This document shows, one piece after another, positions 3,618-33,719 of a DNA stretch of 35,289 nucleotides. A program made the translations under genes and the position numbers. Within the stretch, counting starts at the first letter, position 1. Every line of letters begins with the position of its first letter. A model generated the notes under the pieces. That model was not told the origin of the DNA and did no database searches. It saw nothing but the letters and a program-made list of their open reading frames with translations. Source of the stretch: a virus. The stretch covers positions 1-35,289 of the IMG/VR virus record IMGVR_UViG_3300009705_000053; one strand, given 5' to 3'.

Positions 3618-4097
3618 ATGGCAAACAAAGCATATCTCACGGCAATTTCGCGAAAGAAACTCTCTGGACCGATGCAATGGCTCATGAATAACAGACTCAT
3701 CCCAATGTGTCAAGAGGGGAAGAGGAAGCTGGATTACGGGTGCGGGCGAGGAACTGACGCCGAACAGCTCGACATGATGAAGTATGACCCGCATTACTTC
3801 CCGGACACCCCCCTCACTCCCGGCTTTTACTATTGCGTGACATGCAATTACGTCCTGAACGTCATACCCGAGAAAGAGGAGCGGGGGAAGGTTCTTTCTG
3901 CGCTGAAAGAATTGGGCAGCAACCGGGTGGGATCGGTCTACGTGTCAGTCCGAAACGACAAAAAGAGTCTTAATGGGTGGACCACCCGCGACACATGGCA
4001 GGGTTTAATCGAGGATAGCGAATTGGCCGAAGCCGGATTCGAGAAGATCTACACGAACTCAAACTTCAGAATGTTCCGATGGAGTATCACCACTTGA
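3618..4097 (+). CDS. SAM-dependent methyltransferase-like protein
   Basis: A 159-residue protein and the only convincing plus-strand gene. RKLDYGCGRGTDAEQLD (from about residue 36) is a class I methyltransferase SAM-binding loop, and YDPHYFPDTPLTPG followed by CNYVLNVIPEKEER matches the pattern of the methyltransferase domain in DNA-phosphorothioation-associated putative methyltransferases and related phage proteins. The first motifs are complete, but the domain is short and no target-recognition region is seen, so the substrate is unknown. Its 3' end overlaps the convergent gene ending at 4087 by 11 bases. Opposite orientation and an own promoter suggest a late insertion (moron-like). Confidence 0.7.
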   Translation: MANKAYLTAISRKKLSGPMQWLMNNRLIPMCQEGKRKLDYGCGRGTDAEQLDMMKYDPHYFPDTPLTPGFYYCVTCNYVLNVIPEKEERGKVLSALKELGSNRVGSVYVSVRNDKKSLNGWTTRDTWQGLIEDSELAEAGFEKIYTNSNFRMFRWSITT

Positions 4098-4389
4098 CCT
4101 TGTCTGACCAATATGCTGCGCTCATCTTACCTTTTGCAATGTTCTTGCGATGCCGCGCCTTGAAGCTTTTCCTCCTAGCCGCACTAGCATCGCTTTCCCC
4201 TTCCTTCTTGGGGCTACCGTCCACTCCTTGCTCCCCAAATCGAATCGTCTTCACATCGTCACCGCTTTTCGCAACGACAATATGGCTCTTTGTAGGGTGG
4301 CTGGGTGTCGCCTTGGGCTTGTTGTAGCCACTTACCCCCGCCCGCTCTAATCGCGAATCCTCTTCGATGAAGGCACTGAATGATTTCAT
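4087..4389 (-). CDS. Small basic phage protein with capsid-targeting-like N-terminus
   Basis: A 100-residue protein of a type common in marine T4-like phages: a middle NKPKATPSHPTKSHIVVAK segment, then RFGEQGVDGSPKKEGES, and a basic ARRKSFKARHRKNIAKGKMS tail ending AAYWSDKVKW. The N-terminus MKSFSAFIEED resembles the T4 internal-protein capsid-targeting peptide MKTYQEFIAEA, with a possible prohead-protease cut after IEE. I infer a protein carried inside the head, where the basic tail could bind DNA. It is convergent with the plus-strand methyltransferase, overlapping by 11 bases, and begins a run of similar genes up to 15.4 kb. Confidence 0.75.
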   Translation of the reverse strand: MKSFSAFIEEDSRLERAGVSGYNKPKATPSHPTKSHIVVAKSGDDVKTIRFGEQGVDGSPKKEGESDASAARRKSFKARHRKNIAKGKMSAAYWSDKVKW

Positions 4390-4447
4390 TTCTTGAAAGA
4401 CACAATCTTTTAAAGAACAGTCCTTTTATAAAGAATTGGCTAGATGA

Positions 4448-5830
4448 CTAAACTTCTTCAACTTTACCTTTTAAAACTAAAGGGCGTGTAACTGAATTCC
4501 AATCTTTCAACTTGTTGCTGAAGAAAGGCTTTCCTCCTTCTTTTCTATTGACGGCTAAAGTTACGTGTTTTATATCATTTTTACTTGGAACAGGCGAAAC
4601 AACTCCAACCGCCATAACTAAATCATCTTTAGCAAATGTTTTTACAGTTAAAGGCGCTTCATCTCCTACCATATTTTCAGCAGGACCGCCGTCTGCATCT
4701 CCCATATTTATTGTCATATGGTGAGCGATAACTTCCCATCCTTCTGGAATGTCATCTTTAAATCTAGAAACTAACTTATCTCTGGACGCTTTGTCTAAAA
4801 CAAGTGCTGTGTAACTCATAACCTTTGCGGCTTCTTCCATGCCCCATGCGGGACGCTTCTTCATGGACCGCTCACGTTCGATCTTATCGAAGCGGACTGC
4901 CAGCTCATAACTTCCATCATAGTTGGTAGCATTAGCAAAATCAGCCAGAGCGACCGCACGTTTCTTGGTGGGGGCATCCTCAATCACGGTCCCCTCATTG
5001 TCAATTACGACCCACCGCATACGGCGCCCGAGGGCGCGGTGTAATGTCCCTGTCACCACTTCCATTTTAGTGGCGGAAAACGCCTTTGCGGCTTCTTCCA
5101 AATCATCATCGTCGTCGTCGTCCTGTTTAAGTTCCTCCTCCTCTGGGACATCCTTTTTCTTTCGCTTCCCGAAGGGCATTGGACGACCCTCAATAGACCC
5201 TGCCACAGTGGTCTCCTTCTTGAGGCTCGCCTCGGTGACAAAAATGGTGGTGCCAGTATCATGATGGTAGACCGGAAACACAGGGGTCCCGAAGATGCTA
5301 CCGACCGGCTTGCTATCGGTAGCGGACACCTTGGTGTCTTTGTAGGCAAGCAAATCTCCCGTAATGGGAAGTGCAACATCCTCAGCTAACACGTAGTCTC
5401 CAACTTCAATCACTCCATGCTCGCCCATCCCATCAACCACGCCATCTTCATTCAGCCAAGCATTAAACATGAGAGGACTCTCCCGAAGGTCGTCCATTGA
5501 AAGATCTACACCACATGACTCGGAGATGACTTTCAGGATACTGTCATCACTCAGCCCGGTGTTCTCCTTGATCAACCAAAACGCCGATAGGTATCTTGCG
5601 ATTGTGGTTTTGCCCAAGGGGATTTTTCCCAACAGGCGGCGAATATTGAAGACCAGCCGGTGAAAGAGGGTGTATGCACCCTTTTCCTCTTTAGACTCTG
5701 GTCGTTTCAGGCGCACCCCATCCTTATCAACAACACCCTCCTTGAAAGCAGCAGTTTTCTCCCATGGCATTGTGAGTAGCCGAAGGAAACGAAAGGCATA
5801 TGCATTGTCGGCGAAGCTAAGTAGTCCCAT
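4448..5830 (-). CDS. Modular head-type protein with C-terminal 2H phosphoesterase-like domain
   Basis: A 460-residue protein in three parts. Residues 1-150 match a conserved marine T4-like family (FRFLRLLTMPWEKTAAFK, then AYTLFHRLVFNIRRLLGKIP). After an acidic linker with seven Asp, a site LEEA at 244-247 leads into a small module (WVVIDNEGTV, then TKKRAVALADF), and a second MEEA at 331-334 leads into a C-terminal domain. That domain has two HxT motifs, HMTI at 371-374 and HVTL at 422-425, the signature of 2H phosphoesterases, which act on cyclic or 2'-5' phosphates of RNA or nucleotides. The C-terminal coding region is AT-rich (about one third GC on sampled lines against about half nearby). 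The two EEAAK motifs match prohead-protease sites, so the domains may be separated in the capsid. Confidence 0.65.
   Translation of the reverse strand: MGLLSFADNAYAFRFLRLLTMPWEKTAAFKEGVVDKDGVRLKRPESKEEKGAYTLFHRLVFNIRRLLGKIPLGKTTIARYLSAFWLIKENTGLSDDSILKVISESCGVDLSMDDLRESPLMFNAWLNEDGVVDGMGEHGVIEVGDYVLAEDVALPITGDLLAYKDTKVSATDSKPVGSIFGTPVFPVYHHDTGTTIFVTEASLKKETTVAGSIEGRPMPFGKRKKKDVPEEEELKQDDDDDDDLEEAAKAFSATKMEVVTGTLHRALGRRMRWVVIDNEGTVIEDAPTKKRAVALADFANATNYDGSYELAVRFDKIERERSMKKRPAWGMEEAAKVMSYTALVLDKASRDKLVSRFKDDIPEGWEVIAHHMTINMGDADGGPAENMVGDEAPLTVKTFAKDDLVMAVGVVSPVPSKNDIKHVTLAVNRKEGGKPFFSNKLKDWNSVTRPLVLKGKVEEV
4822..5100 (-). repeat. 18-bp direct repeat flanking a protein module at protease-site codons
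   Basis: CCTTTGCGGCTTCTTCCA occurs exactly at 4822-4839 and 5083-5100 (plus-strand reading). Each copy encodes an EEAAK motif in the gene at 4448-5830. The DNA between encodes one small module, and the AT-rich 2H domain starts immediately beyond the first copy. Confidence 0.8.
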
Positions 5831-5831
5831 A

Positions 5832-6200
5832 TTAAATATCCTGTAGTTGTTTTGCTATGGAGAGGTCCATGTTTGCACATCTTTGCTCCTGCGCCGGTAG
5901 ATAATTCAAAAACATTAAAAACGAATTGAGTGGATCGTGTAGGTCATCATCAATTTTGTATCGCAGCATCCGATTGGCGGCTTCTATGTCGAAGACGTTG
6001 TATAGTGTGATGATGTGGTTGAGCACCAACCGAATGTTAATTTTATTTGAGTCTTTGTATTTCCTGAGCAGCCGCAACAAATAAGAGAAGCGGTTTATGT
6101 CGTCATAGAAATCGGTTAAATCCACGCACCGATTGTTCCGATAGTGTTTTGCCGCAAATAGTTCAAAATTTTTGGAAGTGATTTCATCAAACAGCGTCAT
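5832..6200 (-). CDS. Conserved T4-like phage protein of unknown function
   Basis: A 122-residue, largely helical protein (MTLFDEITSKNFELFAAKHY, then DINRFSYLLRLLRKYK, then VLNHIITLYNVFDIEAANRML). This pattern recurs in marine T4-like phages; no enzyme motif is visible. It starts after an AATAAATA box that overlaps the end of the upstream gene and is 6 bases before the ATG, resembling T4 late promoters (TATAAATA). One base separates it from the next gene. Late expression and a structural or assembly role are possible but only inferred. Confidence 0.7.
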   Translation of the reverse strand: MTLFDEITSKNFELFAAKHYRNNRCVDLTDFYDDINRFSYLLRLLRKYKDSNKINIRLVLNHIITLYNVFDIEAANRMLRYKIDDDLHDPLNSFLMFLNYLPAQEQRCANMDLSIAKQLQDI

Positions 6201-6205
6201 TGCTG

Positions 6206-6481
6206 TTATTTATTCTTCCCCTGCAACCCCTTTGAAAGTTCATTAATGGCATCAGCGAGTTTATCAGAACTTTTGACCCACCTGCCGGTCATCTCACTGC
6301 GCTCTTCCTTGCCATCATCCAACATGGTCTTTACCAAGTCGATGTGCCGCTTATTATGATTTGTCGAGGTGCGAATAAAGAGGACAATAATCCCCACCAA
6401 GGAACCAAACATCAACCCAATTATCCCGTAATCTCCCCATGATGTTGGTTCATGGATGGTTGATAGCAGAAACGGGATCAT
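6206..6481 (-). CDS. Small membrane protein, holin-like topology
   Basis: A 91-residue protein with one strong membrane span (GIIGLMFGSLVGIIVLFI, about residues 18-35) followed by a long charged helix (NHNKRHIDLVKTMLDDGKEE) and a Lys-rich end. This is the plan of BhlA/UviB-like small phage membrane proteins, some of which act as holins. The neighbour at 6485-6808 is another membrane protein, so the pair may form a holin/antiholin or an envelope-modifying unit. No endolysin gene is seen in the window, so the lysis role stays a guess. Confidence 0.55.
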   Translation of the reverse strand: MIPFLLSTIHEPTSWGDYGIIGLMFGSLVGIIVLFIRTSTNHNKRHIDLVKTMLDDGKEERSEMTGRWVKSSDKLADAINELSKGLQGKNK

Positions 6482-6484
6482 GTA

Positions 6485-6808
6485 TTAGTTTTTTGTGCCG
6501 CGAAGTCTCACTAAGACCCAGAGCAGATGCAACGTGGTTGTGCTGGTCGCAAAAAACATGATGAACCGAATCCAAGACTGTAGCACAAGGGACCAATTAT
6601 CCAAGGCTCCGGTATGGGCGGCATATGCAAAAGACACGGTGCCAAGACCGATGATACCCTCCCCGATGAGTTGCCATGATATCGCTCGGGAAAGCCTTTG
6701 TGCCGACGACCTCCCTCCTGCATATGCTCCGAAAAACATTGCCGTTACGCAACTCAGGACTACGGTAAGTATCCCAAGAATAAGTATGACTGCTGTAATG
6801 AACTCCAT
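6485..6808 (-). CDS. Multi-span membrane protein
   Basis: A 107-residue protein with three or four hydrophobic spans (FITAVILILGILTVVLSCV, then IGEGIIGLGTVSFAYAA, then SWIRFIMFFATSTTTLHLLWVLV). No family was recognised. An AAGGG ribosome-binding site lies shortly before ATG 6808. It is immediately upstream of the holin-like gene, with a 3-base gap, and is probably expressed with it. A role in lysis or membrane remodelling is plausible but unsupported by any motif. Confidence 0.55.
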   Translation of the reverse strand: MEFITAVILILGILTVVLSCVTAMFFGAYAGGRSSAQRLSRAISWQLIGEGIIGLGTVSFAYAAHTGALDNWSLVLQSWIRFIMFFATSTTTLHLLWVLVRLRGTKN

Positions 6809-6924
6809 TTAACCCTTTTGTTAGTGTTTAAGCTACTGGCTTGTATACCAACCCACCACGATCCTCTGCGCTGGTTGACTTGGCTTCACCCACGGCTCGC
6901 AAAAGCCAATCCCGCAACCGATCA
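6809..6924 (-). other. Gap with an open frame that could extend the upstream gene
   Basis: The 116-base gap after the stop at 6925 contains no promoter or terminator that I can see. On the minus strand one frame stays open to a stop at 6828 and reads protein-like (FNDRLRDWLLRAVGEAKS, then AEDRGGLVYKPVA). It would join the upstream gene if one G were lost from the GGG run at its end. See findings. Confidence 0.35.
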
Positions 6925-8370
6925 TTAAACCCTGCTATAATATTCGTTCTTCGATTTAGACTTATTGATGAGTTTGAATGCAATATCAGCCATCTTAGTG
7001 ACACCAAAATCGGTGAACGATTTTTGGTTTTTGGAACCCAACTTATCGTAAACCTGCGTGATTGCAGATGCCGAAAAAGCATCAACATCAACGGATTTGT
7101 TCAACTTGGTGTCCTTGACATTTTTATGTTGGTGGTCTTTGACAATGCTTCTGAGTTGTTTGATAAGCTCAGGTTCTGAGGCTGCTTCTTCAAGTTCCTC
7201 AGTGGATTCCTTAACATTCCTCACAGAAACTGTATCGCCATCACGCTCAACTTTTAGCTTCTTGGACATCTTCTCGCCCAGATCGTCGTCATCATCGTCG
7301 TCGTTCCCCACGCTATCAGGAATATCAAGCTCAACCTCGCTCTTTACCATCTGTCGCTGTGCCTTCGCATACGCGAGTTTACGAATCTTCTCTCGGAACT
7401 CCCTGCGGCGACCATCAATGGGAGATGCGCCCTCATGCATATCCTCACGGGATTCGCCCATCATCCTCATCACCTCTACGTGATCTAACTTATGCTTGAA
7501 CATCAACCGGGAAGCAGCACTTCGGCTAACAAAGGCGATGCGGGCCTTGACAAGTTTTTTGAGAAACTCTTTGTCGTCATCAAGTTCCCTGATCGTGTCA
7601 CTAAGTTTGGAAGCATCCTCATGACCAATCTTCTTCCCGCGAAGAGGCTCGTATACTTGACGGAGACGTTCAATTTCTTTCCCGGATGAACTTTCTTTCA
7701 TCGGTTCTTTTTTAACATACCCGGTAGAGACCTCGATATCTCTGAGTTTGTCTTTCTCACTATAGTGACCGTCATCATCATCATCAACATCATCAACGGT
7801 GTCCAATAGAGAAGCAACAATTTCGTCCTCTTCCTCATCGGTTAGATCGTAGTCAAAATCTTCGTCCATATCATTGTCTTTCGTTTCAGTCTCCTCGGAG
7901 ACGGTTTCTGTGTCTGTGAGGCGCTTATTGCCACCAATCACAGTATTTCCTTCCACTGTCACACGACCCGCTATGAAGGCATCGCCTTTGACAGTCGCCT
8001 GTCCGCGCACACCCGCCCAACCAGAAATTTGTGCTTTACCCTTAACTGTGGCATTACCGTAGATAACCGCATTCAGGTTGACATTAGCCTTCTCGGAGAC
8101 ACTCGCATTATCAGAAACCTCAGCGTTCCCAGAAACCTCCGCGTTCCCAGAAACCAGTGCGTCATCCATGACTTGCGCATTATCCATGACTTGCGCATTA
8201 TCGGAGATCCAGCAATTGCCGTCATGACTCAGGTTATCTTCGGATTCGATGAAGCCACCAAGGTCGTCTTTCCGCACCCTGTGTTTTGGTAGCGATATTA
8301 GCGCCCGGATCTGCCGCAACCTCTTGTTTTTTGGATGTGCTGCCTCTGTGATTTCATATTTCAATTTCAT
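6925..8370 (-). CDS. Beta-helix repeat plus marine T4-like domains; probable packaged polyprotein
   Basis: A 481-residue mosaic. Residues 35-145 begin GGFIESEDNLSHDGNCW and continue with six-residue repeats of the V-S-G-N-A-E type, the left-handed beta-helix of YdcK-like proteins. A long acidic linker follows (runs of Asp at 170-200). Residues 265-345 hold a basic helical domain (FLKKLVKARIAFVSRSAASR). A second Asp run precedes a site LEEA at 393-396, and the last domain (LRSIVKDHQHKN, then SASAITQVYDKLG, then MADIAFKLI) resembles a conserved marine T4-like module. LEEA fits the T4 prohead protease consensus. The N-terminus MKLKYEITEA resembles a capsid-targeting peptide, but is also typical of the YdcK family, so it is weak evidence. 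Confidence 0.7.
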   Translation of the reverse strand: MKLKYEITEAAHPKNKRLRQIRALISLPKHRVRKDDLGGFIESEDNLSHDGNCWISDNAQVMDNAQVMDDALVSGNAEVSGNAEVSDNASVSEKANVNLNAVIYGNATVKGKAQISGWAGVRGQATVKGDAFIAGRVTVEGNTVIGGNKRLTDTETVSEETETKDNDMDEDFDYDLTDEEEDEIVASLLDTVDDVDDDDDGHYSEKDKLRDIEVSTGYVKKEPMKESSSGKEIERLRQVYEPLRGKKIGHEDASKLSDTIRELDDDKEFLKKLVKARIAFVSRSAASRLMFKHKLDHVEVMRMMGESREDMHEGASPIDGRRREFREKIRKLAYAKAQRQMVKSEVELDIPDSVGNDDDDDDDLGEKMSKKLKVERDGDTVSVRNVKESTEELEEAASEPELIKQLRSIVKDHQHKNVKDTKLNKSVDVDAFSASAITQVYDKLGSKNQKSFTDFGVTKMADIAFKLINKSKSKNEYYSRV

Positions 8371-8384
8371 TTTAGCAGGAATCG

Positions 8385-10694
8385 TTAAGATATGTAGGCA
8401 TTCAACTCATAACGACCGCTTTCCATCCCAAAGACCTGAAAGGCAGCGGTTCTGCGGGTCTCTTTTCCATTTTTTTCAAGTTCAACAATGATGCTGTTAG
8501 TCTTGCCAGCAGAAGGCTTTCTAGGACCAGTCGAAACCTTGTTAAACCAGTTGTCTGGGTCCACTGTGTATCCGTTTCTGGCAATGAGATCCAGAACCTC
8601 ACTGAGAGCATCGGTGTAGGAGGTATGATAGACTTCATAATCCTTCTTGCCCTTGCTCCGTTCTTCCAGAGAATTTGCAAAATCTTTCAAATTCTTGGAT
8701 TCATCGACTGAGTATTTTGCCAAGACGAAATAGCTTCCGGGGTTGCTCTTATCCAGAGTAGCAACGTATGAGTCCCCATCAAATGGGTGAATCCAGACGG
8801 AACCACCCTTTTTGATCACCATTTCGGGATGCCCTCCAAATCCTCGCGACCCATACGGATCAAAAGAACCCGCACCAGCGACTTTAAGTTCGACCCGACT
8901 CCTTGCCTTGATCCACTGTTTGCTATCTGGTTTGATGCCTGTATTTAAAAGGGACTTCGCCGCCTCATCCAGATTGGAGTAAATGATACTCAGGATGTAG
9001 TCACGGGGATCAGTATCCATGGTAGAGGCATACTTCAGGGCACCCGACTCATCGCCCTTCTGGAGCATCTTGGCGACTGCAAGCATATCAGCCTTATCAA
9101 TGCCACCATGTTTCTTGGCATAAGCCTCAAGGTCTTTACCTTTCCCCTTCAGATCACTAGATTTTCTGGCAGGAGGGAGGTCGCCCTTGGCCTCATCGAG
9201 ATCGACTTCTTCGTGCAGTGTCCAAATAATTTCAGCAATTTTCTTCACTCCTGATTTGTCATACATCTTGCTGGCATAGCCGAAACCTTTCCTAACAGCA
9301 TCCTTTGCGTCTTTGGGATTAACACCAGTTTTAACTAGGTGCGCTTCAACGTCTTTTGGTGTTACTTCCTTGGCCTCATCCAGATCAACATCCTCATTCT
9401 CAGTAGATTCTTTGACGGGTTTGCCGTTCTTTGAGATGAATCCCTTATACCCATCGGCTTGCACATCACGCAAATGCTTCTTGGCCTTGTCTAGTGTCAT
9501 AAACTTAGCGGTAGAGATCGGCCCGCGCCTGCTCTTGCCGTATCTGACCCAATATTGAGGCGCATCGCCACTCGACGGGAGGGTGAAACCGGGATCATCA
9601 GATATCCAAGGCTTCCCTTTCACTGCCTCGTTCTTCTCAGGCTTCTCATCATCTGCCTTCCATCCGGCATCAATCTCATCATAGAACTTCTTCTTGTCCC
9701 CATCAGCGAGATCACCGGGAGATTTTGCTCCATACTTCTTGAGAGTTTTCTGAAAGAATGCCTGATATGCCTTCTTGTCACCCTTGGTGTCTTTCTCTGC
9801 GCCTTCATCAAGGAGTGCGTTTCCGGTCACATAATTCTGTGCCGCAGGAATCAAAACCTTGTCATAAAACTCTCTAGATCCACCGATCCAGCCCCACCCA
9901 TCATTTGAAACCTTCCCGCCATGCTTCTTGGCAATATTGATAAATGCATCGAGACCGGGTCCAGACCCCCTGTAATCGGTAACTGCCTTGTCAAAGGTAG
10001 GTGGATTGGAGAAATCGTCATCATCAAACACCTTGTTCTTCTTCAGCCAATCGTAAGCAACTTTACCGGAAATCTTCCCTTTCGTAGCCTCCTCAAGATC
10101 TTCAGTTTCCTCGGTATTCGCTCCCTCCTGAACGTATTCTGCCTTGGTATCGGTGTAACGCTGGTTTCCCAGTGTATACCAGCGTGATGTCCACTCCTTG
10201 GGCACCTTTTTAAGGGCAAGGAGGGCATCCTCAACCGAATCAAAACTACCAAGAGTGACCACTTTGGCCGAAGACCACTTTGCTCCCCGGCCTTTCAGGA
10301 TCTCATAGGCAGCAGTCACCCGATTCTTACCGTATTGACCGGTTAGGGTATCGACAGTTTTCACCAACTTACCACTGTATTCTCCCTCGTCCATACGATT
10401 CAGATCATCACAATCACGCCCCTCATTGACAAAATCCACAGCAGCAAGCATTGAGCCTCCGGTCTTAGGGTCATTGACCAACATAGTAACCGTCCCATCA
10501 GGAAGTTTCCCTCTGAAATCCCTACCAACTTTTTTCCATTCTGCTTTGGTTATCAGAACTTTGTTGTTTTTGATCTCGTATTTCGCCTCAGTGACAAATG
10601 ATGGAGATTTTACATCCTCGGAAGAAGGTCCCCCGGACATGATTTTTTCGGCCACCCCGGCCATTTTACGGATGAGCGCGTTGTCGTTAAACAT
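8385..10694 (-). CDS. Large modular polyprotein with five predicted prohead-protease sites
   Basis: A 769-residue protein made of short unrelated modules. Sites of the L-x-E-[AG] type occur at residues 200 (LEEA), 295 (LDEG), 438 (LDEA), 499 (LDEA) and 575 (LDEA), giving six segments of about 60-200 residues. Recognisable marine T4-like modules are KKAYQAFFQKTLKKYGAKSP (307-326) with FYDEIDAGWK, a YWVRYGKSRRGPIST module near 381, and a C-terminal module with DALSEVLDLIARNGYTVD, DNWFNKVSTGPRKPS and YELNAYI. No catalytic motif was found. I infer processing in the prohead into separate internal proteins. A perfect T4-late-like TATAAATA lies 9 bases before the ATG, overlapping the stop of the upstream gene. 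Confidence 0.7.
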   Translation of the reverse strand: MFNDNALIRKMAGVAEKIMSGGPSSEDVKSPSFVTEAKYEIKNNKVLITKAEWKKVGRDFRGKLPDGTVTMLVNDPKTGGSMLAAVDFVNEGRDCDDLNRMDEGEYSGKLVKTVDTLTGQYGKNRVTAAYEILKGRGAKWSSAKVVTLGSFDSVEDALLALKKVPKEWTSRWYTLGNQRYTDTKAEYVQEGANTEETEDLEEATKGKISGKVAYDWLKKNKVFDDDDFSNPPTFDKAVTDYRGSGPGLDAFINIAKKHGGKVSNDGWGWIGGSREFYDKVLIPAAQNYVTGNALLDEGAEKDTKGDKKAYQAFFQKTLKKYGAKSPGDLADGDKKKFYDEIDAGWKADDEKPEKNEAVKGKPWISDDPGFTLPSSGDAPQYWVRYGKSRRGPISTAKFMTLDKAKKHLRDVQADGYKGFISKNGKPVKESTENEDVDLDEAKEVTPKDVEAHLVKTGVNPKDAKDAVRKGFGYASKMYDKSGVKKIAEIIWTLHEEVDLDEAKGDLPPARKSSDLKGKGKDLEAYAKKHGGIDKADMLAVAKMLQKGDESGALKYASTMDTDPRDYILSIIYSNLDEAAKSLLNTGIKPDSKQWIKARSRVELKVAGAGSFDPYGSRGFGGHPEMVIKKGGSVWIHPFDGDSYVATLDKSNPGSYFVLAKYSVDESKNLKDFANSLEERSKGKKDYEVYHTSYTDALSEVLDLIARNGYTVDPDNWFNKVSTGPRKPSAGKTNSIIVELEKNGKETRRTAAFQVFGMESGRYELNAYIS
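9186..9389 (-). repeat. Near-identical DNA at two LDEA motifs
   Basis: Plus-strand 9186-9206 and 9369-9389 match at 19 of 21 bases (CTTGGCCTCATC then GAGATC or CAGATC). Both encode VDLDEAK in the polyprotein at 8385-10694 and bound a module of about 61 residues. Confidence 0.7.
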
Positions 10695-10703
10695 ATATGT
10701 TCC

Positions 10704-10711
10704 TATTTATA
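10704..10711 (-). promoter_or_regulatory. T4-late-type promoter box TATAAATA
   Basis: The minus strand reads TATAAATA exactly, the T4 late promoter consensus recognised by gp55-loaded host polymerase. It overlaps the stop codon of the gene ending at 10707 and lies 9 bases before ATG 10694. The overlap with a stop codon makes chance a fair alternative. Confidence 0.4.
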
Positions 10712-11156
10712 CAATTTTAAGTTTCGAGAGTTTAATCGCCTTCTTCACTGAGTCTTTGGGGATATTGGAGACCGCATAATTTCCGGGGTCTCTGGGGTCC
10801 AGATTCGGAAGCTTCTTGCGGTTCAGAATCAGCAGGTATCCTTCTCCAGTGTCACGGTATGCCACCATAGCAAACCGTCCTGCCAGATGGATGTTGTCCG
10901 CGACATAAGAACCATCAATGTCGCTGGTGTTGCCGTCCCCTTTGGATTTCACTGATCCATCTCGGGTCAGAACCTTGTATTCAAGTTCAGAAATGCCCCG
11001 GTAGACCTCTGATCGTTTACTCTTTAGGTCATTGAGCCGGTCTGCAATGCGGCGAAGATCGCCTTCAGGCTCCCAGATCAGGAAATCCTCTACCTTGGAC
11101 TCTTCCAGATGACCAACGCTTTCGCCCCTCTTGTGAAATTGGGAAAATGATTCCAT
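10707..11156 (-). CDS. Hypothetical protein with capsid-targeting-like N-terminus
   Basis: A 149-residue protein. I choose ATG 11156 (MESFSQFHKRGESVGHLEES) over a GTG six bases upstream. The start resembles the MKSF-type leaders of neighbouring genes, and HLEE at 16-19 is a possible prohead-protease site. The rest has no recognised domain; it contains LRRIADRLNDLKSKRSEVY (helical) and a beta-rich part (GRFAMVAYRDTGEGYLLIL). Two flanking genes are of the same modular class, which supports a head-internal role by association only. Confidence 0.6.
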   Translation of the reverse strand: MESFSQFHKRGESVGHLEESKVEDFLIWEPEGDLRRIADRLNDLKSKRSEVYRGISELEYKVLTRDGSVKSKGDGNTSDIDGSYVADNIHLAGRFAMVAYRDTGEGYLLILNRKKLPNLDPRDPGNYAVSNIPKDSVKKAIKLSKLKIV

Positions 11157-11183
11157 GGTCACACTACATCCGAATCACCCTTG

Positions 11184-11891
11184 TTAGAATTGAATTGTAA
11201 AGGCGCGATTTCCAAATTCAATTACTCGAAATTTGGGACCCTTTGCCAATTTGCTGATCTGTATATCGGTGATCTTGATTGAAGACCCGCCCGTGCTTTC
11301 CTTGAAAGTAAATGCCGCTGCCTCTCCGACCGCAGTGTTGAAAAAATATTTGGCATCTGCACGGAGGGTTTTCTCCCAGACCGCGACCGCTTTTTCGGAT
11401 TTAGGGGAAAGATCTCCTCGGTCCTTCTCATCCTTAAATTGAGTGGGTTTCGCACTATCATCCTTGAAGGTAGCTTCATCGAGATCCCCCTCGACTTCCT
11501 CATACCGCAAGACCTTATCGCGGGTGAAGAAATTCCGCTTTCTCATGATCGTCTTTCCGATCAGTTCGATATCTCCAGTCTTCCTATTGAGACTCACGAC
11601 CACCGGAAGGTTGAGGTTTGATGTCACATCTTTGATCACTGCCTCAATATCCTTGGCTTTCTTGATTTGCTTTCCTCGATTTTTTGCAATTTTCGCAAAA
11701 AGTAATTGCAATTCATCCGCAACAATCTCCGGTGTATTGCGGTCATCGTTTACCCGATCCATAAAATGCCGTGTAAACTCAACTTCAATGCCAAATTTAT
11801 TAAGCAGATTGTCGGCATATGCCTCAACAGAATTGAGTTGTGCTTGCGTGATGTCTTCTCGTATGCTCTTGATGGTTTTCATGTTTTTCAT
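11184..11891 (-). CDS. Two-module marine T4-like protein with one protease-like site
   Basis: A 235-residue protein. Residues 15-125 (VEFTRHFMDRVNDDRN, then IVADELQLLFAKIAKN, then LVSLNRKTGDIELIGKT read as VVVSLNRKTGDIELIGKT, then IMRKRNFFT) form a conserved domain found in many marine T4-like phages, function unknown. LDEA at 137-140 (site EGDLDEATF) separates it from a C-terminal module (KAVAVWEKTLRADAKYFFN, then KITDIQISKLAKGPKFRVI). The start could be ATG 11891 or the in-frame ATG nine bases later; the second would begin MKTIKSIREDITQA, close to the T4 internal-protein leader. Three bases separate it from the preceding gene. Confidence 0.7.
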   Translation of the reverse strand: MKNMKTIKSIREDITQAQLNSVEAYADNLLNKFGIEVEFTRHFMDRVNDDRNTPEIVADELQLLFAKIAKNRGKQIKKAKDIEAVIKDVTSNLNLPVVVSLNRKTGDIELIGKTIMRKRNFFTRDKVLRYEEVEGDLDEATFKDDSAKPTQFKDEKDRGDLSPKSEKAVAVWEKTLRADAKYFFNTAVGEAAAFTFKESTGGSSIKITDIQISKLAKGPKFRVIEFGNRAFTIQF

Positions 11892-11894
11892 GTG

Positions 11895-13796
11895 CTATAC
11901 TTTGCGGATGGAGATCAACGATGTTCCCATGTCCCCGACCGCCAGAGTGACGCTTTCCCCAATCTTCTCGCCATAGATGTCCTTTTTATTCCTCTTGTAG
12001 AGAAAAAACTTAACACCCGCTCCATCTGGACGCCTTAGCGTGATCTTTTCTAGGTCATACTTTGCGCTTTTGGATTTCCTTCCCACCACCAAAGGCAGCC
12101 ACATTGTCGCTTTGCGCACACTGCTATCATACCAAACCTCCACTTTATCCTTTGATTTCAGAGAATCGAAGAACTTGACCAGATCTTCTGGAGATATTTT
12201 GGTGGGAGCAGACTCCTCACCCAAATACTCAGCTTGGTCGCCCAACCCATCCTCTGTGATGCCAAATTTCCTTAGCAGTTTTTTGTCTGCCCCAGCCATG
12301 TCCGAAATCCACTGTCTGGCAATAGGGGAGGTGGGTTTACTCTCTGAAAACGTCTTGAATTTCTTAAATGCATTAGTAGTCGCCTTTTGAAATTTCGCCC
12401 CAGCGTCATCACTGTTATCAACAATCACGAATTTATCTCCGAAGAATTGTTGAAAGCCGCCCAAATTGTTCTGGACATCGTTCCATCCCTGCTCTACTAC
12501 CTCTTTTTTCAGAGTTCTTTCCCGTTTTTCGTTTCGTGCTAGGGCAGTTTCGAGGTTGGTATTCACAAAAAGCATGGACACAGCATATCCAAATTTCTTC
12601 AGTCGCTCGGCCTGTTTCTTGATTCTAGAAAACGATTTGCCAGTGCCATCAACAACAACACCCAGACGACCGTCAATCCACAATCCCTCTTGCATCGTGG
12701 TGCGGGGTTTTGCAACCCATTTGCGGACACGTTGCCCGGATTTGCTCGATAAAATGTCTGGGTCGCCAAGCACATCCTCTTCGCCCACTCCGGGAAACAA
12801 TTTGCCGCTTTTGGCGGCTTTTTTCATAGCGCGTTCGAAGTGTACATCACTCGAAAGAACCTTAAACCCTAAAGCGGGCAGACCAACCCTGCCCAGAGTG
12901 TAGGATTTACCAGAACCCGGACCACCCGCCATGAATACCGCTTTGAAGATGGCAGGATCGCCCACACCTTCTTCAATGCTCCGGGGGTGAATGTCATCCA
13001 GCCAGCACTTCTGTTCCGCTCCCTCAATATCTTCACAGACCACAAAATTAGGGCATCGCTCTGTGATCACCAGCTCGGAATTGCCTTTGGTGACAATATC
13101 TCCCACATTGAATATCTTGCCTTGAGTGTAATCCTCTCGGACATCACTGACCTTGGGTAGAGAAGTGTGCTTGCGGTGACCGTAAGTCTCTTTGAGTCCC
13201 ATGCCTTTGCGAGTGGCATTCATCAATTCTTGAACCTCCCCGAAGTTCTTGGGAAGGTTGGAAGCAAAGGCTTCAAAGTCATTTGCAGCGGCGGCTTCAC
13301 GCAGTGTAGCCGAAGTTACCCCGGAGCGATTGGCTTCCTCAGAGAGGTTTGTGGTATCACCCGAAGAGACCACCCGAATACCATCACTGAAATGGTAGTG
13401 TCCGTCCTCTCGCATCTCTCCGTTGTGCTTGGTCAGCAATGCCGTGGTTGCAGCAACCGCACTCGATTCTGTGACATAGACGAGTTCAGTGTAACCTTTT
13501 TCGTATGCCTGATCAGCAATGCGAAGAACCTCCGTGACACTTTCATCCAATAGGATGTTTCGGGCATGTGTAGGAAACATTTTTCGCATAAACTTCACCT
13601 TGTCCCGATACTTCAGGGGGTTCGCCTGAGCATCCTGAGTCTGTGAAGAGTATATGCTGTAATCTGCCCCACCACCGGCCATTTCCGCAACCATATCAAG
13701 GGTCTCTTGGTGTGCCGAACTGGGTGGATTAAAATCTCCAAAAGTTACTACCAAGGTTTTTTGGCACTCTGTTATGTATTCTTTAAAGGATTTCAT
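11895..13796 (-). CDS. Fused nucleotidyltransferase and P-loop kinase with capsid-targeting leader
   Basis: A 633-residue multidomain protein. The leader MKSFKEYITEC is very close to the T4 capsid-targeting peptide MKTYQEFIAEA. Residues 12-200 are a cytidylyltransferase-like domain: TFGDFNPPSSAH (the HxGH-type motif, ending at His29) and SATLR at 162-166 (the SxTxxR motif). Residues 225-270 form a small beta-rich module (KIFNVGDIVTKGNSELVI). Site IEEG at 274-277 precedes a zeta-toxin-like P-loop kinase with Walker A GGPGSGKS at 291-298 and an R-rich lid (RNEKRERTLKKEV). A C-terminal 100 residues are unassigned. Similar fusions occur in marine T4-like phages. Likely reactions are nucleotidyl and phosphate transfer on a nucleotide or NAD precursor; substrates are unknown. 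Confidence 0.75.
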   Translation of the reverse strand: MKSFKEYITECQKTLVVTFGDFNPPSSAHQETLDMVAEMAGGGADYSIYSSQTQDAQANPLKYRDKVKFMRKMFPTHARNILLDESVTEVLRIADQAYEKGYTELVYVTESSAVAATTALLTKHNGEMREDGHYHFSDGIRVVSSGDTTNLSEEANRSGVTSATLREAAAANDFEAFASNLPKNFGEVQELMNATRKGMGLKETYGHRKHTSLPKVSDVREDYTQGKIFNVGDIVTKGNSELVITERCPNFVVCEDIEGAEQKCWLDDIHPRSIEEGVGDPAIFKAVFMAGGPGSGKSYTLGRVGLPALGFKVLSSDVHFERAMKKAAKSGKLFPGVGEEDVLGDPDILSSKSGQRVRKWVAKPRTTMQEGLWIDGRLGVVVDGTGKSFSRIKKQAERLKKFGYAVSMLFVNTNLETALARNEKRERTLKKEVVEQGWNDVQNNLGGFQQFFGDKFVIVDNSDDAGAKFQKATTNAFKKFKTFSESKPTSPIARQWISDMAGADKKLLRKFGITEDGLGDQAEYLGEESAPTKISPEDLVKFFDSLKSKDKVEVWYDSSVRKATMWLPLVVGRKSKSAKYDLEKITLRRPDGAGVKFFLYKRNKKDIYGEKIGESVTLAVGDMGTSLISIRKV

Positions 13797-13803
13797 CGTT
13801 TTG

Positions 13804-14730
13804 CTAGTCTTTGTCGCCTGATGCCATTCTTTGCTGCTCGGCTTTTTTTAGTTTTGGAATAAGTTTCTTTGCCATCTTTGTAATTTTACCCGACATTTTG
13901 GCAAGTTTTTTCTCGATACGCTCTTTCTCACTGAAAGACGCTTCTCCTTTATCTTTCCCCTTGAGTAGCTTTTTGAAAATAACATCCCGCGCCTTCTTTG
14001 TCGCCCGATTGAGAAGCTTCTCGGGGGACGCTTTCTTCGATTTGGCTTTTTTGATTGCCCGTTGCATTTTTGCCGAATTCCTTTTGGCAATATTAGAGCG
14101 CTTAATACGCTGAGAGCGTGTTAGTGCTTCGTCAAGGTCTTCTTCCTCCAACTCAGCATTTTCCTTTAAAGGATATCCAACCATCTCCCCAGATCTCTTT
14201 TCACCTGCTGGTTTTTTTAACTTAACAATTTTTAAAGTATTTTTATTTTTAATTGAAATTGGTGGTCTTTCTGATGAAGAGATTGTTCTTTTTGCACCCT
14301 CTTCATTTGATGCAGTACCAACTACAACATCATCATTTGCTGTATCAATCACAACATGAGTTGTTTTTACTGAATATAGTGCTTCATCAAGGTCTTCTTC
14401 CAGATCCAGACCATTAAGTTCGTCCTCGACGCCTTGAAGAACCCGGAGTCTCATTTGAAAAACACTCTCAGAGGGGTTGTTGTTTCCCACCATGCTAATG
14501 GCCTGATCAAAATCCACAGCGCGGGTGATGAGCCGTGTCAAGTGTGCCAGATCAGAGGTGATATCCTTCTTGAGTCGGCTCAGGGAAGTAGTCCCATGAA
14601 GCGGTATTCTCACTTTGGGGTCATCCGGGGTTCCGCCCGAAACGATAAAACCCTCTTCCAGATCTTCTGGAGACCCATCAACCCATGTCTCTAGTTCTGG
14701 GGTTTGGCGAATTTGTTCAAATGATTTCAT
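13804..14730 (-). CDS. Modular basic protein, probable packaged polyprotein
   Basis: A 308-residue protein starting MKSFEQIRQT, with three L-x-E sites: LEEG at 24-27, LDEA at 114-117 and LDEA at 199-202. The segments are an N-terminal helical part, a small AT-rich middle module (THVVIDTANDDVVVGTAS), and a strongly basic C-terminal domain (RSQRIKRSNIAKRNSAKMQR, then KKARDVIFKKLLKGKDK, then KMAKKLIPKLKKAEQQR) that resembles a conserved T4-like marine phage domain and probably binds nucleic acid. The same EEDLDEAL motif stands on both sides of the middle module, and the DNA encoding it is nearly identical. I infer cleavage in the prohead. Confidence 0.7.
   Translation of the reverse strand: MKSFEQIRQTPELETWVDGSPEDLEEGFIVSGGTPDDPKVRIPLHGTTSLSRLKKDITSDLAHLTRLITRAVDFDQAISMVGNNNPSESVFQMRLRVLQGVEDELNGLDLEEDLDEALYSVKTTHVVIDTANDDVVVGTASNEEGAKRTISSSERPPISIKNKNTLKIVKLKKPAGEKRSGEMVGYPLKENAELEEEDLDEALTRSQRIKRSNIAKRNSAKMQRAIKKAKSKKASPEKLLNRATKKARDVIFKKLLKGKDKGEASFSEKERIEKKLAKMSGKITKMAKKLIPKLKKAEQQRMASGDKD
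14122..14401 (-). repeat. 25-bp direct repeat flanking an AT-rich cassette
   Basis: Plus-strand 14122-14146 and 14377-14401 agree at 24 of 25 bases (starting TAGTGCTTC, ending CTTCTTCC). Both encode EEDLDEAL. The DNA between is strikingly AT-rich: by hand count one 60-base line (14221-14280) is about 22 percent GC while the line at 14401-14460 is about 48 percent. Confidence 0.85.
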
Positions 14731-31670: not shown

Positions 31671-31699
31671 ATTGTAGTGTAAAATATGCCGCAAGTCAA
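31671..31699 (-). promoter_or_regulatory. 45: Sigma70-like promoter for the gp45-44-62-regA operon
   Basis: Minus strand TTGACT (31694-31699), 17-base spacer, TACAAT (31671-31676): five of six consensus bases in each box. ATG 31662 is eight bases downstream, so the leader would be one or two bases. Confidence 0.7.
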
Positions 31700-32451
31700 C
31701 CTCGGACCCGTATGTCCCCAGAGAGTGTTGCGTCCCCGGAGATTACTGCTGTCCCAGAGACCCATGCTTCCCCAGAGACCATTGCGTTCCCGGTGACCAT
31801 TGCGTTCCCGGTGACCTCTGCTTCTCCAAAGACATTTGCGTTCCCAAAGACCCGTGCGGTATCACAGATTGCGGTGTCCCCATAGACCTGTGTGTCCCCA
31901 TAGACATGTGCGTTCTCAGAGACCCATGCGTCCCCAGAGACCGATGCGTCCCCAGAGACCGATGCGTTTCCAGAGACCGATGCGTTCCCATAGACCCATG
32001 CGTTTCCAGAGACCGATGCGTTCCCATAGACCTGTGCGTTCTCATAGACCATTGCGTTCCCAAGGACCTTTGCGTTCCCAGAAACCTCCGCGTTCCCAGA
32101 GACATTTGGGTGCCCAGAGACCAATGCGGTCCCAGAGACCTTTGCGTTCCCAGAGACCTTTGCAGCCCCAGAGACCAATGCGTTCCCAGAGACCTTTGCG
32201 TCCCCAGAGGCCGATGCGTTGCCAAAGACCATTGCCTCCCCAGAGACCCAGCAGTCGCCTTCATGACTTAGATTGTCTTCGGATTCGATGAAGCCACCAA
32301 GCTCGCCCTTTTTAACCTTACCAAAATCCTGAAGAGAGCGAATTCGTTTGATGGTTGAAAAAACCGGAGAACTTTCATTTGTGATTTCGTATTTTTTAGA
32401 CACAGTGGATTCGTTTCTAATCGCTGGGGGTTCTTTACTGATTTTGTTCAT
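31696..32451 (-). CDS. Left-handed beta-helix repeat protein (YdcK-like)
   Basis: A 251-residue protein. After an N-terminal region and KGELGGFIESEDNLSHEGDC, it is made almost entirely of six-residue repeats (VSGNAE, VYGNAS, VSGDAW) that form a left-handed beta-helix, as in YdcK-like proteins. The N-terminal part is a paralogue of residues 33-60 in the gene at 6925-8370, and the DNA is also similar. No catalytic residues are visible. Its place between gp45 and the MoxR gene interrupts the core, suggesting insertion. Function unknown; it may be a structural or surface protein. Confidence 0.8.
   Translation of the reverse strand: MNKISKEPPAIRNESTVSKKYEITNESSPVFSTIKRIRSLQDFGKVKKGELGGFIESEDNLSHEGDCWVSGEAMVFGNASASGDAKVSGNALVSGAAKVSGNAKVSGTALVSGHPNVSGNAEVSGNAKVLGNAMVYENAQVYGNASVSGNAWVYGNASVSGNASVSGDASVSGDAWVSENAHVYGDTQVYGDTAICDTARVFGNANVFGEAEVTGNAMVTGNAMVSGEAWVSGTAVISGDATLSGDIRVRG
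31716..32262 (-). repeat. 18-bp periodic tandem repeat
   Basis: The DNA encoding the beta-helix repeats units of 18 bases (for example GCGTTCCCAGAGACC plus three variable bases on the plus strand) for about 550 bases. The period keeps several frames open on both strands, producing spurious open frames. Confidence 0.85.
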
Positions 32452-32522: not shown

Positions 32523-33719
32523 TTATGCAGTTCCTGATGCTCGACAGCGGCGTCCAAAGGGGTCCTCGTTACTGGTCTCGTCAGCCACGGCTGGTGCAGG
32601 ATCGTCGCCAAGCTTATCGTAAAGGTCCACGAATGCCGTTTTGGTATCGTCATCAAAGCGAGCGATGCATAGGCTAATCGCTTTTTTCTCATCTTCAAAC
32701 ACCGAAAAAGTTTGGACCACATGGCAGAGCCGCCGAGTCGAGATGAATTCATCCACCCCGCCGTCCTCAAATGTTTTTCGGATAATTTCACTCCAAGCGG
32801 TCAGCTTGTCGGCGAATTTAGTCACCGGAACATCGAACTTATCCATGTGCTTTTTAACAATTTTAGTCTCAATTGCCCGCGACGGATAGGGCTGCTCAAT
32901 CGTCACCACGAACCGTTCAAGGAAAGCGTCGTCGATGATTCCAGCAGCACTATACCGCCCGTCATCAGACCCGCGTCCCTTAGTGTTAGCGGTCGAGATG
33001 ACCGTGAACCCAGAGGCAGGAGAAACCACTTCACCCGTCTTTTTAATCATGACAGGCTTGCCTTCAAGCACTCCCTGAAGGCACATGATTTTGTTGGTTC
33101 CCCTATCTATCTCATCAATCAGGAGGACCGCACCAGACTCCATTGCCCGAAGCACCGGACCTTTTTGGAAGACCGTCTCCCCTCCAATGAGGCGAAAGCC
33201 GCCGATCAAATCGTCCTCATCCGTTTCAGGGGAAATTTGGACCCTCACATACTCCCGTTTTGCTTGAGCGCAAGCTTGCTCGACCATAAAGGTCTTGCCG
33301 TTACCAGACAGACCCGATATGTAAATCGGGAAGAATTGGCGGGTAGAGAGCGCTTTTTTGACATTGGCGAAATTGCCCCATGCCACAAACGTGTCATCGA
33401 CATCTGGAACAAACACCGCATCCCCAGACTTGTCAGTGACACCGGACACCATCTTTATGGTGGCAGGGGCAGGAGTAGCGAAGACTTTCGCCACCTTTGC
33501 GGAATTGTATGCAGCGGTCACCTCGGGAAGAGGCTCATCAAACGAGTATGCCCCCCTTCCCACCTTAAACATTTGCCGAAGCAAAGCCCCAGCGACGGCG
33601 GCGGGATATCCCACACTTTCGCAAGCTGTGATGATTTCGGCCCGTGAAAAGAACGAGCGCATATTGCCATGAGTAACGACCATCTGGTCCCGAACGAGTG
33701 TTTTGTCAATTTGATACAT
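32523..33719 (-). CDS. MoxR/CobS-like AAA+ ATPase
   Basis: A 398-residue AAA+ ATPase of the MoxR family, like CobS proteins found in cyanophages. Walker A GLSGNGKT (136-143), Walker B VLLIDEID with GTNK after it, DLIGGFRLIGG (the MoxR-specific segment), then sensor I VISTANTKGRG and FLERFVVTIEQPYP. CobS in bacteria works with CobT and CobN to insert cobalt into the B12 ring. Here the partner is the adjacent VWA protein. It has its own strong promoter and a 40-base leader. The N-terminal 110 residues are unassigned. Confidence 0.85.
   Translation of the reverse strand: MYQIDKTLVRDQMVVTHGNMRSFFSRAEIITACESVGYPAAVAGALLRQMFKVGRGAYSFDEPLPEVTAAYNSAKVAKVFATPAPATIKMVSGVTDKSGDAVFVPDVDDTFVAWGNFANVKKALSTRQFFPIYISGLSGNGKTFMVEQACAQAKREYVRVQISPETDEDDLIGGFRLIGGETVFQKGPVLRAMESGAVLLIDEIDRGTNKIMCLQGVLEGKPVMIKKTGEVVSPASGFTVISTANTKGRGSDDGRYSAAGIIDDAFLERFVVTIEQPYPSRAIETKIVKKHMDKFDVPVTKFADKLTAWSEIIRKTFEDGGVDEFISTRRLCHVVQTFSVFEDEKKAISLCIARFDDDTKTAFVDLYDKLGDDPAPAVADETSNEDPFGRRCRASGTA

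What the first reader, a model, noticed from the sequence alone, without database searches (positions are those of the whole stretch)
4443..5100. 2H phosphoesterase-like domain attached through a repeated EEAAK site, with foreign base composition
The C-terminus of the gene at 4448-5830 has two HxT motifs (HMTI, HVTL) 51 residues apart, the 2H phosphoesterase signature. Its DNA (about 4443-4820) is AT-rich, and the change occurs at the first of two exact 18-bp repeats (4822-4839 and 5083-5100). A structural-type protein carrying an RNA-phosphate enzyme at a predicted cleavage site would be a way to deliver RNA-repair or cyclic-nucleotide-degrading activity, for instance against host defence signals, at infection.
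Basis: partly seen in the sequence, partly recalled or inferred. Interest (0 to 1): 0.75.

Follow-up and report, generated by a model that had tools for sequence, protein, structure and literature searches.

The report
Detachable RNA-end-healing enzyme in phage protein
A virus of bacteria carries, at the end of one of its conserved proteins, a small enzyme that looks built to heal broken RNA ends and sits behind what look like cutting sites of the virus-head protease, suggesting it is packed in the particle, cut loose and injected into the host cell.

Summary
The last ~125 residues of the gene at 4448-5830 (-) look like a 2H phosphoesterase (HMT 371-373, HVT 422-424). The AlphaFold model (pLDDT 89) is closest to CNPase (Z 12.7) and the fungal tRNA-ligase CPD domain (10.7), ahead of anti-CBASS Acb1 (7.8). 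Its DNA is foreign-looking (GC3 0.25 against 0.54) and starts behind the second exact 18-bp repeat, which encodes (L/M)EE-AAK, a T4 gp21-like protease site.

The family seems viral (163 IMG/VR loci; 67 distinct relatives compared). Relatives are solo, fused to a kinase-like domain with T4-type RNA-ligase genes nearby, or cassettes in polyproteins with tRNA-nucleotidyltransferase parts. All 25 non-kinase fusions, window included, have [LIM]xE just upstream (4 expected).

Near-identical related phages differ by cassettes: two of three differences lie exactly between 23-bp repeats encoding such sites. The window's only other equally AT-rich coding segment is likewise repeat- and site-bounded.

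Best reading: a detachable head-cargo cassette that opens RNA 2',3'-cyclic phosphates. Packaging, cleavage and activity are inferred. 2H domains in injected phage proteins are already published; the repeat-encoded protease joint and the CPD-type, RNA-repair-linked family appear new.

The parts
4448..5830 (-). whole gene, 460 aa: N-domain, acidic linker, two protease-type sites, middle segment, 2H domain
   Evidence: ORF and translation
5216..5830 (-). N-domain, residues 1-205, conserved in T4-like phages; the relatives read end soon after it
   Evidence: phrog_18642 and phrog_2086; 564 phage records match P0001, the 60 listed over its N-terminal part; 10 IMG/VR relatives plus C48C1 carry no 2H behind it
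5083..5100 (-). first 18-bp repeat copy; encodes LEE246-A247 (L-x-E site)
4832..5092 (-). middle segment, residues 247-333, between the two sites; no relatives found
4822..4839 (-). second 18-bp repeat copy; encodes MEE333-A334; AT-rich DNA begins beyond it
4448..4831 (-). 2H phosphoesterase cassette, residues 334-460 plus stop, CNPase/Trl1-CPD-like fold
   Evidence: phrog_36523, PF08302 E 7.5e-4, under its cut-off, AlphaFold model pLDDT 89, CNPase Z 12.7 and 6u05 Z 10.7
4712..4720 (-). first HxT motif, H371-M-T373
   Evidence: 67 and 68 of 68 conserved
4559..4567 (-). second HxT motif, H422-V-T424
   Evidence: 68 of 68 conserved
4087..4389 (-). next gene; CTS-like start MKSFSAFIEE, phrog_7595, weaker match (E 2.3e-4) to a minor head protein/DNA pilot family
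13804..14730 (-). second case of the same layout: AT-rich cassette (residues 117-201, GC3 0.16) bounded by two LDE-A sites and by 25-nt repeats at 14122-14146 and 14377-14401 (96%)
8385..10694 (-). multi-cassette protein with LEEA/LDEA sites; 28-nt repeats at 9185-9212 and 9368-9395 (86%) at two of them; segments reshuffled in relatives
11895..13796 (-). cytidyltransferase-like plus P-loop kinase (Zeta/AAA_33) protein with CTS-like start MKSFKEYITE; possible co-packaged kinase

Best explanation
The C-terminus is a detachable cargo cassette. The conserved N-domain takes the protein into, or onto, the assembling head of a T4-like phage (inferred). The phage's gp21-type prohead protease cuts after LEE246 and MEE333 (inferred), freeing a 127-residue 2H enzyme inside the head; it enters the host with the DNA (inferred). 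There the two HxT motifs open 2',3'-cyclic phosphates on RNA ends left by metal-independent host nucleases such as anticodon nucleases, giving 3'-OH/2'-phosphate ends that kinase and ligase can rejoin (fold predicted and family shown, activity inferred). The cassette came from an AT-rich phage and joined the gene at a short DNA repeat that also encodes the protease site (composition and repeat shown, event inferred).
For: 2H fold: model pLDDT 89, CNPase Z 12.7 over 121 residues, fungal kinase-CPD 6u05 Z 10.7, Acb1 7.8, LigT 6.0; PF08302 in 10 of 10 members of A1, best 4.9e-5. Catalytic residues conserved. RNA-repair context: PolyA_pol/CCA-type nucleotidyltransferase, HAD_SAK_1 and AAA_33 kinase in the same proteins (14 given); RNA_lig_T4_1 genes about 0.5-4 kb from the kinase-2H gene in 5 of 6 loci laid out, three of them interrupted genes and two of those under the cut-off. 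Site: 25 of 25 non-kinase fusions have [LIM]xE within 13 residues upstream of the domain, 4.05 expected, kinase fusions 2 of 12; the fusion label needs 9 changes on the domain tree, at least 3 forced by well-supported branches, so attachment behind such sites probably arose more than once. Kinase-2H proteins start MKxxIxx[IV]LRE in 11 of the 12 given (L088 was not picked up by the script), like a capsid-targeting sequence plus site. Protease PF03420 in 19 of 33 contigs. gp21 cuts after L/I-X-E, and CTS-tagged foreign proteins are packaged and delivered (PMC9026906, passages). Repeats as joints: L018, L019 and L020, at least 98.9% identical in the aligned pieces, differ by cassettes, two of three differences lying exactly between 23-bp repeats. 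Source: 16 of 18 relatives' 2H genes, picked by hand, have GC3 of 0.31 or less.
Against: The target gene has no CTS-like start and its N-domain gave no confident model (pLDDT 56); no virion proteomics was seen. CTS-like starts among the window genes are 4 of 39 with 0.98 expected from shuffling, a modest excess. The second site has M, not L/I, at P3. No gp21 and no T4-type-1 RNA ligase lie in the 35-kb record, which is a fragment. 10 of 10 contigs with the N-domain, all but one under 60 kb, show no 2H, so the fusion is known from one record. The window's domain scores below Pfam's cut-off (19.5 against 23 bits), and only 9 of 14 family proteins matched PF08302 at 0.01, 4 over the cut-off. Foldseek alone gave no PDB match at E 0.001 or better (best 1.1e-3). 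One cassette difference between L018/L019 and L020/L021 (236 bp against 8) is not between such repeats. The 25 fusions are partly related rows.
Confidence: 0.55

Rival explanations
1. The cassette is packaged and injected, but degrades nucleotide signals of host defence (cyclic or 2'-5' oligonucleotides) in the manner of Acb1, rather than healing RNA ends.
For: Acb1 and a phage phosphodiesterase (BCSR5) share the fold (Z 7.5-7.9); polyvalent-protein 2H domains were proposed for this or for RNase action (PMC5512222, section 20).
Against: CNPase and the fungal CPD stand about 3 to 5 Z units above Acb1; Pfam finds tRNA_lig_CPD and not Acb1 in the domain, while separate Acb1/LigT-like domains occur beside it in some of the same polyproteins (L059, L067, L076, L084); RNA-ligase, kinase and tRNA-nucleotidyltransferase links.
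Confidence: 0.17
2. The fusion is an ordinary cytosolic protein; the EEAAK sites are chance or plain linker, and the 2H domain works in RNA repair during infection without being packaged.
For: 31 of 68 rows are solo, by eye mostly with only a few residues before the domain (not tested for CTS, and L094 starts MKLITLLKE, which is CTS-like); the target gene lacks a CTS-like start; the reductase gene is close by.
Against: 25 of 25 non-kinase fusions behind [LIM]xE against 4 expected; the genes from 4448 to 14730 hold 10 of the window's 13 [LIM][DE]EA sites; the only other equally AT-rich segment is also bounded by such sites.
Confidence: 0.2
3. The domain is a decayed or non-catalytic graft, kept as a binding or scaffold part.
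For: Single known record of this fusion; recent-looking composition.
Against: Both HxT motifs and the other positions invariant in 68 of 68 are intact in the window; the frame is open.
Confidence: 0.06
4. The junction is an assembly chimera of two phages.
For: Metagenomic record; sharp composition step at a repeat.
Against: An 18-bp repeat is shorter than usual assembly words (recalled); gene order on both sides (5832-6200 gene and N-domain; reductase, 854 and 429 genes) is the same in L018-L022, with other sequence between these two blocks; a second gene of the window shows the same layout.
Confidence: 0.04

Closest known systems
Fungal tRNA ligase Trl1 kinase-CPD module (Pfam PF08302; PDB 6u05)
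   Same: 2H fold, HxT pair; in some phage relatives the domain follows an AAA_33 kinase domain, with T4-type RNA-ligase genes nearby
   Different: ligase is a separate gene; in the window the domain is on a T4-like N-domain without the kinase; below Pfam's cut-off for the window itself
Vertebrate CNPase catalytic domain
   Same: best fold match, Z 12.7, 2.1 A over 121 residues
   Different: 14% identity; the phage domain is shorter (123 against about 210 residues)
Polyvalent proteins of phages (Iyer et al. 2017, PMC5512222; passages and section 20 seen)
   Same: multi-domain proteins thought to be packaged and injected; 2H and ADP-ribosyltransferase domains occur in them
   Different: there processing is ascribed to a built-in MPTase and the 2H versions were never seen with RNA ligases; here the joints look like gp21-type sites and this 2H family has members near RNA ligases
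T4 internal head proteins IPI-III and Alt with capsid targeting sequences and gp21 cleavage
   Same: [LIM]xE sites; CTS-like starts in several neighbours and in kinase-2H proteins
   Different: the target gene has no CTS; the cassette is C-terminal and internal sites separate cassettes
Anti-CBASS Acb1 (7t26)
   Same: 2H superfamily fold
   Different: Z 7.8, no Pfam Acb1 match

Membership tests
2H phosphoesterase superfamily | two HxT/S motifs | tested here: met
   H371-T373 and H422-T424, conserved in 67-68 of 68
2H phosphoesterase superfamily | 2H fold | tested here: met
   predicted model pLDDT 89; the best matches listed by VIA-align (CNPase, Trl1 CPD, Acb1, LigT and kin) are 2H enzymes
2H phosphoesterase superfamily | phosphoesterase activity, both histidines in one pocket | not testable with these tools
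   no assay; coordinates not available
tRNA-ligase CPD / CNPase branch | match to PF08302 over its cut-off | tested here: inconclusive
   window 19.5 bits, cut-off 23; of 14 family proteins scanned 9 match at 0.01 and 4 (L059, L067, L035, L108) pass the cut-off
tRNA-ligase CPD / CNPase branch | linkage to 5'-kinase and RNA ligase | tested here: inconclusive
   met in relatives: 12 kinase rows, RNA_lig_T4_1 near 5 of 6 laid out; no ligase of that family in the window fragment
Acb1 | match to Pfam Acb1 | tested here: not met
   only PF08302 at E up to 10
Polyvalent proteins | several effector domains in one packaged protein, with known LPD/MPTase/ART domains | tested here: inconclusive
   target gene has no Pfam match as a whole; relatives' polyproteins carry ART-PolyVal
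T4-type internal head protein | N-terminal capsid targeting sequence | tested here: not met
   starts MGLLSFADNAY; not among the 4 of 39 CTS-like starts
T4-type internal head protein | gp21 site L/I-x-E | tested here: met
   LEE246-A247; second site has M at P3
T4-type internal head protein | presence and cleavage in the virion | not testable with these tools
   needs proteomics
T4-type internal head protein | gp21 homologue in the same phage | tested here: inconclusive
   none in the 35-kb fragment; present in L019 and L021, relatives with longer contigs

The most novel reading that the evidence does not exclude
In these T4-like phages short DNA repeats that encode the prohead-protease site serve twice: as protein joints where head cargo is cut apart, and as recombination joints where cargo cassettes are gained, lost and traded between phages. 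The 2H domain is one such cassette, so a phage lineage can re-arm the set of enzymes it injects by repeat-mediated exchange without breaking maturation.
Probability: 0.5. Interest if true: 0.78.

Novelty: new variant of a known kind. Interest (0 to 1): 0.64.

Why it matters
How T4-like phages acquire new injected proteins is open; CTS tags are known, but a DNA element that is protease site and recombination joint at once would explain cassette turnover and gives a simple rule ([LIM]xE behind a repeat) for finding unknown injected enzymes in metagenomes. A head-packed RNA-end-healing enzyme would also mean that repair of host-cut tRNA can start before phage gene expression, which needs intact tRNA.

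Tried and rejected
N-domain as T4 gp40 (head vertex chaperone): suggested by annotation and position, rejected; a profile of five relatives finds nothing convincing in the two T4 stretches read (64 of 169 kb), and gp40 belongs to other families. N-domain fold: model pLDDT 56, not searched. PDB sequence search with A1 gave only MYB chains (8 distinct sequences, best E 9.6e-4), judged chance. Cellular relatives: the genome-contig scan used two peptide patterns and gave one weak match (L031, WOR-3); the frame read there is 43 residues, judged spurious and dropped. Middle segment: no relatives. Window kinase (11895-13796) against the kinases fused to the 2H: only short P-loop-level matches (best E 0.14). 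PADLOC: no match in the three proteins given. RNA ligases: PF09414 also rings in 8 of 14 control genomes, so the count (17 of 20 contigs over a cut-off with PF09414 or PF09511) is only suggestive. MCP sites: of 20 loci read, L117 gave a wrong frame and was dropped; of the remaining 19, all but L121 show [LIM]xE at about residue 46-58 (counted by eye; no chance test). Rows dropped before counts: L031 and identical copies; the tool kept 80 of 163 confirmed loci. L096 was first mislabelled and corrected; L101, whose own frame has lost the kinase, was counted as kinase with its identical copies L102-L104. Segment starts: with the looser pattern [LIM]xE[AGSER] 6 of 8 lie near a site (1.31 expected), with [LM][DE]E only 4 of 8 (1.11 expected). 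Assembly chimera: see rivals.

Full report
What is there. The gene at 4448-5830 on the minus strand encodes 460 residues. Residues 1-205 match phage families of unknown function (phrog_18642, E 1.4e-31; phrog_2086) and residues 339-445 match phrog_36523, E 1e-5. Between them are an acidic linker, the site LEE246-AAK, 87 residues without relatives found and the site MEE333-AAK. The two sites are encoded by an exact 18-bp repeat. What follows the second copy is AT-rich: GC3 0.246 against a mean of 0.537. The record is T4-like by its UvsX-type recombinase and family B polymerase.

The domain. Alone it matches one Pfam family, the fungal tRNA-ligase phosphodiesterase domain, at E 7.5e-4 but under the curated cut-off; all 10 members of the first alignment match it at E up to 1. 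AlphaFold gave pLDDT 89. Foldseek's best PDB match has E 1.1e-3. Realigned by VIA-align, the best solved structures are CNPase (Z 12.7), the fungal kinase-CPD protein 6u05 (10.7), then a phage phosphodiesterase and Acb1 (7.9, 7.8) and LigT (6.0). So it is very probably a 2H fold and leans to the branch that opens 2',3'-cyclic phosphates. That preference is inferred from fold ranking and context; a fold shows no function.

The family. Scans of IMG/VR with the alignment confirmed 163 loci, of which the tool kept 80; 67 distinct domains plus the window were compared. A two-pattern scan of 84,980 cellular genomes gave one weak and probably spurious match, so the family seems viral. Three layouts were counted: at most 44 residues upstream ('solo', 31, which includes L077, where a nucleotidyltransferase and HAD domain follow), kinase fusions (12) and other fusions (25, with the window). 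The 14 proteins given to searches show tRNA-nucleotidyltransferase parts, ADP-ribosyltransferase of the polyvalent type, LigT/Acb1-like domains, acetyltransferase or AAA_33 kinase beside the 2H.

The site. T4's prohead protease cuts after L/I-X-E (PMC9026906, passages). Of the 25 non-kinase fusions, 25 have [LIM]xE within 13 residues upstream of the domain, where 4.05 are expected from random places in the same proteins; kinase rows show 2 of 12. Rows are related, so the simulated probability is not to be trusted as such, but the fusion label needs 9 changes on the tree, at least 3 of them forced by well-supported branches. Kinase fusions instead begin with MKxxIxx[IV]LRE in 11 of 12 given, L088 not being picked up by the script; this looks like a capsid targeting sequence ending in the same site, but the kinase rows are probably one clade. 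A gp21-family protease was found in 19 of 33 contigs and a gp23-type shell protein in 21 of 33. Neither the protease nor an RNA ligase of T4 type 1 is in the window's own 35-kb fragment.

The graft. In L018-L023 (N-domain 56-60% identical) the protein ends soon after the N-domain, and no 2H is found on any of the 10 contigs with an N-domain relative. Gene order around the spot is the same in L018-L022: the 5832-6200 gene and the N-domain gene on one side, the reductase and the 854 and 429 genes on the other, with other sequence between these blocks. That argues against a chimeric contig. Relatives' 2H genes are mostly AT-rich (16 of 18 picked by hand with GC3 of 0.31 or less), as expected of the source.

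Repeats as joints. The only other stretch in the window genes as AT-rich as the 2H is in gene 13804-14730: residues 117-201, GC3 0.16, bounded by two LDE-A sites whose DNA forms 25-nt repeats 96% identical. Gene 8385-10694 has 28-nt repeats (86%) at two LDE-AK sites. Segments of these proteins recur in relatives in other orders; 6 of 8 segment starts lie within 8 residues of an [LIM]xE[AGSER] site, 1.31 expected, but only 4 of 8 with the stricter [LM][DE]E, 1.11 expected. Most directly, L018, L019 and L020, at least 98.9% identical in the aligned pieces, differ by cassettes. L020 has 397 bp (822-1218) between two identical copies of a 23-bp repeat encoding ESVEELEE where L018 and L019 have one copy. 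L020 and L018 have a 202-bp stretch (L020 1491-1692) between two copies of a second such repeat (one mismatch between them in L020), encoding EST(E/D)ELEE, where L019 has one. A third difference, 236 bp in L018 and L019 against 8 bp in L020, is not between such repeats. L021 is like L020 throughout. So DNA encoding the presumed protease site is also a place where cassettes come and go.

What was not shown. No virion proteomics, no cleavage and no enzyme activity. The N-domain's role is unsure: one homologue is annotated putative capsid component and holds 35 residues, 18 identical, that match T4 gp23 from its LTE (residue 63) on, which hints at the head; that match was not looked for in the window's own N-domain. 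The gene itself lacks a CTS-like start.

Known and new. 2H domains in proteins thought to be injected were described by Iyer et al. 2017 (PMC5512222, passages and section 20), who never saw them with RNA ligases and favoured RNase or signal-degrading roles; later papers link phage 2H domains to RNA repair and, when fused to MuF or portal, to packaging (PMC7824862, passages, and PMC9503650, passages and one section). What differs here: this family is of CPD/CNPase type, has members beside RNA ligases and on kinases, and its joints look like prohead-protease sites encoded by recombining repeats. The nine searches of the held open-access library listed no paper that I recognised as describing such repeat joints; four papers were opened in part, of the others only listings and starts of abstracts were seen, and most subscription papers are not held.

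Noticed in passing
window 13804-14730: AT-rich cassette (residues 117-201, GC3 0.16) bounded by LDE-A sites and 25-nt repeats 96% identical: the same layout as the 2H graft.
   Followed up: yes
L019 1923-1945 and 2172-2194; L020 822-1218 and 1491-1692: Nearly identical phages differ by cassettes lying between 23-bp repeats that encode ESVEELEE or EST(E/D)ELEE; a third difference is not so bounded.
   Followed up: yes
L106 6139-8680, L111 9298-9900, L014 10441-11022: T4-type RNA-ligase genes near the kinase-2H gene are interrupted by intein/Hint-like domains in three phages.
   Followed up: partly
window 11895-13796: Cytidyltransferase-like plus P-loop kinase protein with start MKSFKEYITE, a possible packaged protein; 467 phage records match, mostly cyanophages, the listed ones mainly over the cytidyltransferase half.
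   Followed up: partly
window 6925-8370 and 31696-32451: Two proteins with YdcK-type beta-solenoid repeats; their starts look related by eye (LGGFIESEDNLSH in both).
   Followed up: no
window 32523-33719 and 33836-35092: AAA_5 ATPase gene next to a gene that reads like a VWA-type protein (the latter by eye; no Pfam match).
   Followed up: no
L109 1658-2233 and L106 3052-3648: Solo ART-PolyVal proteins near kinase-2H genes; starts MKQLIKKLLRE (CTS-like by the rule) and, from an internal Met, MKDLITKRLRE.
   Followed up: no
L146 2968-3447 (Acinetobacter phage AB1I1M-1): N-domain homologue holds a stretch like the N-terminal arm of gp23 (18 of 35 identical), which may explain 'major capsid protein' labels on homologues.
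   Followed up: partly
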